Positions 12,966-22,872 of a DNA stretch of 24,654 nucleotides are shown here, piece after piece. The position numbers and the translations under genes are program-made. Position 1 is the stretch's first letter, and each line of letters begins with the position of its first letter. Origin of the DNA: Chloroflexota bacterium (GTDB taxonomy: Bacteria; Chloroflexota; Dehalococcoidia; Lucifugimonadales; UBA826); contig PBDP01000005.1 in assembly GCA_002718095.1 (NCBI GenBank), forward strand, positions 209,108 to 233,761, in the 5' to 3' direction. The notes beneath the pieces were generated by a model, which was given only the letters and a program-made list of their open reading frames with translations, made no database searches and was not told the origin of the DNA.

Positions 12966-13706
12966 ATGAATATTATCAAACTGGATGAAAGAAATATTTA
13001 TAGAAACTCTATTTATAAATATTTGGATGCTGATTTTTCTCAATACATACTCTCACAATATATCGCTTCTGATAATCTGAATTCCGACACTCTTATAAAA
13101 TTTATGGGTGAAAATGATATTGATTTAACTCCAGTTATGCCAGACATAAAAAATTCTTCAACGGGGGTTATATTTTTTTTGAAAGAAAAAATATTGGATA
13201 TTGTGATTCCTTCATTTGAGGTTACAGAGAATTCAATTCACACTTCATATGATTTAGGACCTTTAAAAAACATTTTTAGCAAACCACGTATGGTAGGCGT
13301 CATTTTATTGCGATTAGGAAGATTTGCTTTGGCTATACTGGATGATGAAAAAATAATTGCATCAAAAACTGAAGGGAGGTACGTTAAAAATAGGCATAAA
13401 GCAGGGGGGTCTTCACAACGGAGATTTGAACGGAGCAGAGAACGACTTATCAGGGAATTTTACGATAAATCTTGCGAACAAGTTGAGAAAGTATTTGAGC
13501 GACATATTAAAAATATTGACCATATTTTTTTAGGTGGAGAAGCCCACACATTAAATGGGTTCAAGAAACGGTGCTCATTTATTAATAAGTATGATCAAAA
13601 AATGATGACCAGAGTATTAGATGTGAATATACCAAATCAAAAAACTATAAATTCTATAGCTAGACAAGTTTATTCTAGTAAATTAATAACATATGAACTG
13701 ATTTAA
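12966..13706 (+). CDS. Vms1-like (VLRF1) peptidyl-tRNA hydrolase/release-factor domain protein
   Basis: A 246-residue protein I place in the bacterial Vms1-like release factor group (acVLRF1/eRF1-like fold). The clue is GRYVKNRHKAGGSSQRRFER: a conserved basic lead, Gly-Gly and a glutamine (Gln151), which in Vms1/ANKZF1 and eRF1-type factors positions water to cut peptidyl-tRNA. The helix after it (RSRERLIREFYDK) and LGGEAHTLNGF also fit. Such factors release stalled nascent chains in ribosome quality control. ATG at 12966 has GAGGA nine bases upstream; a TTG at 12960 in the same frame is too close to that site. It is monocistronic and its stop is 6 bases from the convergent SDR stop. The family call is from memory of motifs. 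Confidence 0.72.
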   Translation: MNIIKLDERNIYRNSIYKYLDADFSQYILSQYIASDNLNSDTLIKFMGENDIDLTPVMPDIKNSSTGVIFFLKEKILDIVIPSFEVTENSIHTSYDLGPLKNIFSKPRMVGVILLRLGRFALAILDDEKIIASKTEGRYVKNRHKAGGSSQRRFERSRERLIREFYDKSCEQVEKVFERHIKNIDHIFLGGEAHTLNGFKKRCSFINKYDQKMMTRVLDVNIPNQKTINSIARQVYSSKLITYELI

Positions 13707-22795: not shown

Positions 22796-22872
22796 GGGCG
22801 GTTAGCTCAGTGGTTTAGAGCGCTGCGTTGACATCGCAGAGGTCACAAGTTCGACTCTTGTACCGCCCACCA
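22796..22872 (+). tRNA. tRNA-Val (anticodon GAC), CCA encoded
   Basis: A complete cloverleaf: acceptor 22796-22802 pairs with 22862-22868 (GGGCGGT/ACCGCCC); D-arm GCTC/GAGC; anticodon stem CTGCG/CGCAG around loop TTGACAT, giving anticodon GAC (valine, GTC/GTT codons); T-arm ACAAG/CTTGT around TTCGACT; discriminator A and an encoded CCA at 22870-22872. TAGAAT at 22781-22786 could be its -10 box. No repeat of its 3' end occurs elsewhere in the window, so I see no sign of use as an integration site. Confidence 0.96.

What the first reader, a model, noticed from the sequence alone, without database searches (positions are those of the whole stretch)
12966..13706. Vms1-like release factor in a low-GC, Chloroflexota-like genome
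The protein has the glycine-glycine plus glutamine core (GGSSQ, Gln151) with a basic flank that marks Vms1/eRF1-type peptidyl-tRNA hydrolases. Bacterial versions are little studied and could release chains stalled in ribosome quality control. It stands alone, with no RqcH or tRNA-editing partner beside it.
Basis: partly seen in the sequence, partly recalled or inferred. Interest (0 to 1): 0.6.

Follow-up and report, generated by a model that had tools for sequence, protein, structure and literature searches.

The report
Ribosome-rescue release factor paired with MutS2
The gene encodes a bacterial relative of Vms1, the factor that frees stuck protein chains from split ribosomes in yeast; in its bacterial class it is often encoded directly next to MutS2, the machine that splits collided ribosomes, while the usual bacterial partner RqcH is missing, which suggests a simpler and untested version of ribosome quality control.

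Summary
The gene is real and is an acVLRF1-type release factor: Pfam PF18859 at 81 bits against a cut-off of 27, and a confident model with both eRF1-like domains that also superposes on Vms1 bound to the 60S subunit. The family itself is known (described 2019, uncharacterised).

(1) It is alone in this genome but not in its class. Among 142 acVLRF1 genes from Dehalococcoidia, 67 of 132 informative ones lie beside MutS2 (RqcU, the collided-ribosome splitter) on the same strand, usually within tens of bases, in 24 of 43 taxonomic families. acVLRF1 rarely occurs without MutS2 (10 of 133 genomes).

(2) RqcH was found in none of 324 class genomes, so it cannot act on RqcH-tailed chains. The window genome has MutS2, tmRNA, SmpB, RF1 and RF2, but no ArfB or RqcH was found.

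(3) Gln151 is not the conserved part. G147, G148, S150 and R153 are invariant in 142 genes, but position 151 is Gln in only half (Ser, Ala or Glu otherwise).

Best reading, inferred and not shown: MutS2 splits collided ribosomes and acVLRF1 frees the chain left on the 50S subunit, without tailing. Catalysis is untested.

The parts
12966..13706 (+). acVLRF1 gene, 246 aa, ATG start, TAA stop
   Evidence: Frame open; Pfam PF18859 81.2 bits
12966..13286 (+). N-terminal domain, residues 1-107: predicted shortened eRF1 domain-1 fold without stop-codon motifs
   Evidence: Model of residues 1-108: eRF1 6xa1 Z 8.9, 96 residues, 2.5 A; no NIKS-like or YxCxxxF motif in 143 homologues
13287..13676 (+). 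eRF1 middle-type (RNase H fold) release domain, residues 108-237
   Evidence: Pfam acVLRF1 covers residues 109-237; aRF1 8hku Z 14.5 over 128 residues, 2.8 A
13404..13418 (+). Active loop GGSSQ, residues 147-151; G147, G148, S150 invariant in the class, Gln151 not
   Evidence: Sequence; conservation over 142 genes; low-confidence coil before helix 149-178
13410..13499 (+). Long basic helix after the loop, residues 149-178; R153 invariant, R156 and R158 nearly so
   Evidence: DSSP of the model; conservation

Best explanation
The gene is a Dehalococcoidia acVLRF1: a two-domain eRF1-like factor without the C-terminal domain of eRF1 and without stop-codon motifs. I infer that it acts downstream of MutS2. 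[quoted passage not shown] acVLRF1 enters the empty A-site side of that 50S particle, places its GGxS(Q) loop at the peptidyl-transferase centre and triggers release of the nascent chain, so that the 50S is recycled. No RqcH tail is added, because the class has no RqcH. Shown here: family and fold, the MutS2 linkage, RqcH not found, and invariance of the loop residues. Inferred: binding to the 50S, catalysis, and the order of steps.
For: acVLRF1 profile and an eRF1/Vms1-type model. RqcH in 0 of 324 class genomes with controls positive. MutS2 directly beside acVLRF1 on the same strand in 67 of 132 informative loci and 24 of 43 families, median gap 33 nt in the upstream order, both gene orders seen. 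Co-occurrence: class 123/10/116/75, p 2e-11; order 37/1/5/17, p 1e-9, and one row per family 20/1/3/16, p 3e-7. Adjacent MutS2 proteins carry the splitter-type LDLR rather than the nuclease DxH motif, as in B. subtilis MutS2 (PMC10897456). GG, S150 and R153 invariant. The window genome has MutS2, and RF1/RF2 but no ArfB. Published: MutS2 leaves peptidyl-tRNA on the 50S (PMC10897456), and no dedicated RQC termination factor is known in bacteria (PMC11317155).
Against: No biochemical evidence for any step. In the window genome the two genes are 133 kb apart. 116 class genomes have MutS2 without acVLRF1 and without RqcH, so MutS2 does not need acVLRF1. In other phylum members (G097, G241, G299) true acVLRF1 occurs without MutS2, and Actinobacteriota are reported to have neither mutS2 nor rqcH (PMC11633108). 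Half of the class genes lack the Gln. No genome tree was used, so shared ancestry inflates the genome-level p-values.
Confidence: 0.58

Rival explanations
1. It acts on whole stalled 70S ribosomes as a free-standing rescue factor (an ArfB-like role), and the MutS2 linkage only reflects shared regulation.
For: No ArfB in the window genome: the RF-1 domain is found only in two proteins of RF1/RF2 size. The one relative with an ArfB-sized RF-1 ORF (G033, 140 aa) lacks acVLRF1. The N-terminal domain keeps the eRF1 domain-1 fold. acVLRF1 occurs without MutS2 outside the class.
Against: Adjacency to and co-occurrence with MutS2 in the class. Codon-reading motifs are absent. tmRNA and SmpB are present. 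The ArfB contrast rests on one genome.
Confidence: 0.14
2. It frees the chain by cutting the tRNA near its CCA end, as has been proposed for Vms1/ANKZF1, rather than by hydrolysing the ester bond.
For: Fold match to Vms1 on the 60S subunit (6r84, Z 10.6, 174 residues). PMC11317155 describes Vms1/ANKZF1 as a tRNA endonuclease. GG-x-S and R153 are fixed while Gln151 is not.
Against: The closest families by sequence are acVLRF1, eRF1_2 and baeRF10; bVLRF1 is below its cut-off. The motif GGSSQ resembles eRF1 GGQ more than the single-glycine GxuQ of Vms1 described in PMC6514570.
Confidence: 0.13
3. It is a non-catalytic A-site factor (Dom34- or Balon-like) that helps splitting or stores ribosomes, at least in members that lack Gln151.
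For: Position 151 is Ser, Ala or Glu in 71 of 142 genes, with at least 21 changes on the tree. Balon and Dom34 are among the fold matches, Z about 11.
Against: GG, S150 and R153 are 100% invariant, unlike the poor loop conservation described for inactive baeRF and Dom34 families (PMC6514570). The window protein and the sampled members of its family have Gln.
Confidence: 0.12

Closest known systems
acVLRF-1 family (Pfam PF18859; Burroughs and Aravind 2019, PMC6514570)
   Same: Profile score, GGxSQ motif in the window protein, no C-terminal Pelota-type domain, Chloroflexota host
   Different: Below the cut-off of NCBI's acVLRF1 model (98 against 125). In this class the Gln is lost in half of the genes, the gene is often beside MutS2, and the N-terminal part folds like a shortened eRF1 domain 1 instead of an unrelated extension.
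Vms1/ANKZF1 (eVLRF1), release factor of eukaryotic ribosome quality control
   Same: Same fold over residues 11-243 (6r84, Z 10.6); same inferred task after ribosome splitting
   Different: No treble clef, ankyrin or Cdc48-binding parts fit in 246 aa; two glycines in the loop; acts in a class without any RqcH/Rqc2 homologue found
RqcH-MutS2-Pth quality control of Bacillus subtilis
   Same: MutS2 of the splitter type (LDLR/DIR in the SMR domain)
   Different: No RqcH found in 324 class genomes. Pth was not searched. Inferred release without tailing.
aRF1/eRF1 stop-codon release factors
   Same: Two of three domains by fold
   Different: TIGR03676 58.7 bits against a cut-off of 234.7; no NIKS-like or YxCxxxF motif; no third domain
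baeRF family 10 (PF18854)
   Same: Same superfamily, 46 bits here
   Different: Clearly lower score than acVLRF1. Phylum hits of about 20-54 bits to PF18859 mostly lie in longer ORFs of about 350-470 aa and may be of this kind; not tested.

Membership tests
acVLRF1 (Pfam PF18859) | Score above the curated cut-off and best among related families | tested here: met
   81.2 bits against 27.1; eRF1_2 47.5, baeRF10 46.3, bVLRF1 25.5. The cut-off alone is not specific: it is also passed in four archaeal control genomes.
acVLRF1 (Pfam PF18859) | GGxSQ catalytic loop | tested here: met
   GGSSQ in the window protein; across the class GGxS is fixed but Gln is present in 71 of 142
acVLRF1 (Pfam PF18859) | Stop-codon domain lost and replaced by a short N-terminal extension (PMC6514570) | tested here: inconclusive
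   Codon motifs absent, but residues 1-108 fold like eRF1 domain 1, Z 8.9; Foldseek alone only E 0.028
acVLRF1 (Pfam PF18859) | Peptidyl-tRNA hydrolase activity (predicted for the family) | not testable with these tools
   Needs an in-vitro release assay
acVLRF1_NCBI (NF041024) | Score above NCBI's cut-off of 125 bits | tested here: not met
   98.1 bits; class relatives 105-127. It is therefore not filed under this narrower model.
aRF1/eRF1 (TIGR03676) | Score above the cut-off of 234.7 bits and three domains | tested here: not met
   58.7 bits over one stretch, 246 aa in all
bVLRF1 (PF18826) | Score above the curated cut-off | tested here: not met
   25.5 bits against 27
RqcH-type bacterial ribosome quality control | RqcH (NFACT_N, PF05833) in the genome | tested here: not met
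   0 of 324 class genomes, 0 of 60 relatives over the cut-off, controls positive; window genome 94.6% complete
RqcH-type bacterial ribosome quality control | MutS2 splitter present | tested here: met
   G000:C5:86515-88854, 689.8 bits against 400; GPNTGGKT, DIR and HGKGTG in its sequence

The most novel reading that the evidence does not exclude
Dehalococcoidia have a tail-free form of bacterial ribosome quality control in which a MutS2-acVLRF1 pair does the whole job: MutS2 splits and a Vms1-like dedicated release factor terminates. Its chemistry does not depend on the GGQ-type glutamine, which has changed repeatedly while GG-x-S and an arginine stay fixed.
Probability: 0.3. Interest if true: 0.85.

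Novelty: new variant of a known kind. Interest (0 to 1): 0.6.

Why it matters
A recent paper states that no dedicated termination factor of bacterial ribosome quality control has been identified (PMC11317155), and how genomes with MutS2 but no RqcH finish the job is open. A conserved MutS2-acVLRF1 gene pair in a class without RqcH names a specific candidate and a specific reaction to test. The repeated loss of the 'catalytic' glutamine at an otherwise frozen loop offers natural variants for asking what that glutamine does in release factors.

Tried and rejected
RqcH as partner: searched in the order and the class, not found. ArfB as the rescue factor here: the RF-1 domain is found only in two RF1/RF2-sized proteins of the window genome. 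Local neighbours as a clue: the genes around it are shared synteny mainly within family f1, and the upstream ~660-aa gene of f1 relatives is an Abhydrolase_10 protein not seen upstream in the window. RNA features in the window: only tRNA-Val. Literature: no paper in the held library names acVLRF1; VLRF-1 occurs only in PMC6514570, which never mentions MutS; the one paper holding both MutS2 and Vms1 does not link bacterial VLRF1 to MutS2 in the passages read. The library lacks most subscription papers, so priority of the MutS2 link is not proven. No genome tree was built, so the co-occurrence test is not corrected for shared ancestry beyond collapsing to one row per family within the order. Pth and HrpA were not searched. 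In one search many tmRNA matches of about 76 bases look like tRNA genes; only full-length matches were counted. Searches failed on wrong coordinates and gave nothing.

Full report
WHAT WAS CHECKED. The ORF at 12966-13706 (+) is real: 246 aa, ATG start, GGSSQ at residues 147-151, then a basic helix. The opposite strand has no open frame. GC is 35.7% for the window and 30.6% for the gene.

FAMILY. Pfam gives acVLRF1 81.2 bits (cut-off 27.1), eRF1_2 47.5, baeRF10 46.3 and bVLRF1 25.5, the last below its cut-off. NCBI's acVLRF1 model scores 98.1, under its cut-off of 125; class relatives score 105-127. So this is a divergent branch of the published acVLRF-1 family (PMC6514570). PF18859 also passes its cut-off in four archaeal control genomes, so the ranking among families, not the cut-off, carries the assignment. 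In the PDB by sequence the best relative is archaeal aRF1, E 7e-6.

STRUCTURE. From an alignment of 42 homologues the model has pLDDT 89.5 and pTM 0.84. The GGSSQ region lies in a coil of pLDDT about 61 between strand 129-137 and helix 149-178. Fold matches are the aRF1 middle domain (8hku, Z 14.5, 128 residues, 2.8 A), eRF1, Dom34, Balon, and Vms1 on the 60S subunit (6r84, Z 10.6, 174 residues, 4.5 A, model residues 11-243). Predicted alone, the N-terminal 108 residues (pLDDT 77.8) match eRF1/aRF1 domain 1 in the first 19 rows (best Z 8.9, 96 residues, 2.5 A), followed by Balon and further eRF1 entries. Foldseek alone was weak (E 0.028). None of 143 proteins carries NIKS-like or YxCxxxF motifs. 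The 'short N-terminal extension' of the literature may therefore be a shrunken stop-codon domain that no longer reads codons.

HOST AND RESCUE GENES. The genome (G000, 1.44 Mb, 94.6% complete) belongs to the SAR202/Dehalococcoidia group, judging by named relatives. It has one acVLRF1, a full-length tmRNA, SmpB, two RF-1-domain proteins that by length are RF1 and RF2 and no ArfB, and MutS2 at C5:86515-88854, 133 kb from the gene. RqcH was not found in it, nor over the cut-off in 60 relatives, nor in any of 324 class genomes; positive controls rang.

LINK TO MutS2, CO-OCCURRENCE. In 60 relatives acVLRF1 and MutS2 are both present in 37 and both absent in 17; acVLRF1 alone in 1 and MutS2 alone in 5 (p 1e-9). 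One row per taxonomic family gives 20/1/3/16, p 3e-7. In the class sample the counts are 123 both, 10 acVLRF1 only, 116 MutS2 only, 75 neither (p 2e-11); with acVLRF1 genes of 78 bits or more, 116/4/123/81. The dependence is one-sided: acVLRF1 rarely goes without MutS2, but MutS2 often goes without acVLRF1.

LINK TO MutS2, ADJACENCY. I fetched all 140 acVLRF1 loci of the class sample plus two more. MutS2 lies just upstream on the same strand in 59 and downstream in 8; 65 are not adjacent and 10 are cut by contig ends. That is 24 of 43 families, and both gene orders occur. The median gap in the upstream order is 33 nt; the larger overlaps probably come from taking the longest possible ORF. MutS2 is the commonest neighbour (68 of 142 loci); the next, which looks like an enolase-superfamily gene, reaches 21. 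On an acVLRF1 tree adjacency changes 6 times against about 45 after shuffling, so it is an inherited arrangement with a few gains or losses, not 67 separate events. The window's own family f1 is unlinked.

KIND OF MutS2. Adjacent MutS2 proteins have LDLR in place of the nuclease DxH motif in most cases where the motif was found, keep HGxGTG, and 65 of 67 show the Walker A pattern searched for. The window genome's MutS2 has DIR, HGKGTG and GPNTGGKT. B. subtilis MutS2, which splits collided ribosomes without cutting mRNA, has DLR (PMC10897456).

THE GLUTAMINE. Over 142 class genes G147, G148, S150, R153 and G191 are invariant, while position 151 is Gln 71, Ser 35, Ala 30, Glu 6, both beside MutS2 and away from it. 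The state changes at least 21 times on the tree (shuffled about 48). From general knowledge of release factors, the backbone of the GGQ motif contributes to catalysis, so loss of the side chain need not abolish release; that is inference. The window protein and the sampled members of family f1 have Gln.

MECHANISM. In B. subtilis MutS2 yields a 50S with trapped peptidyl-tRNA, RqcH adds alanines, and Pth can release the chain (PMC10897456, PMC11633108, PMC11317155). Without RqcH the ester bond stays deep in the 50S, where a factor that reaches the peptidyl-transferase centre would be needed; acVLRF1 has the fold for it. I put 0.58 on release from MutS2-split 50S subunits, 0.14 on 70S rescue, 0.13 on tRNA-end cleavage and 0.12 on a non-catalytic role. 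No step of catalysis or ribosome binding has been shown.

NOVELTY. The gene as such is a new member of a known family. The MutS2 pairing in a class without RqcH, and the loss of the glutamine in half of the genes, are not in the passages read, but the library holds only open-licence papers, so priority is not proven.

Noticed in passing
L231 (G208:C48), L258 (G427:C137), L247, L248, L252, L253, L228: A more divergent acVLRF1 type in several Dehalococcoidia (loop GGRSE or GGRSQ in some), not beside MutS2; G208 and G427 carry it as a second copy next to a MutS2-linked one elsewhere.
   Followed up: partly
class sample: 116 of 324 Dehalococcoidia genomes have MutS2 but neither RqcH nor acVLRF1 found, so what follows ribosome splitting there is unknown.
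   Followed up: no
G097:C26, G241:C175, G299:C6: Three Chloroflexota outside the class carry high-scoring acVLRF1 (144-154 bits) but no MutS2, perhaps the actinobacterial type.
   Followed up: no
G033:C9:93970-94353: A 140-aa RF-1-domain ORF (ArfB-like size) in a relative that has MutS2 but lacks acVLRF1.
   Followed up: no
L229 (G002:C51:19485-19868): acVLRF1 with an in-frame TAA in the match, either a broken gene or an assembly error.
   Followed up: no
L056, L118: Records titled Rhodospirillaceae and Euryarchaeota carry Chloroflexota-type acVLRF1 matches, so they may be misbinned or mislabelled.
   Followed up: no
L036:5358-7331 and other family f1 relatives: An Abhydrolase_10 (PF20091) gene lies directly upstream of acVLRF1 on the same strand in many f1 relatives, but not in the window.
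   Followed up: partly
window 22796-22872: tRNA-Val (GAC), the only RNA gene found in the window.
   Followed up: yes
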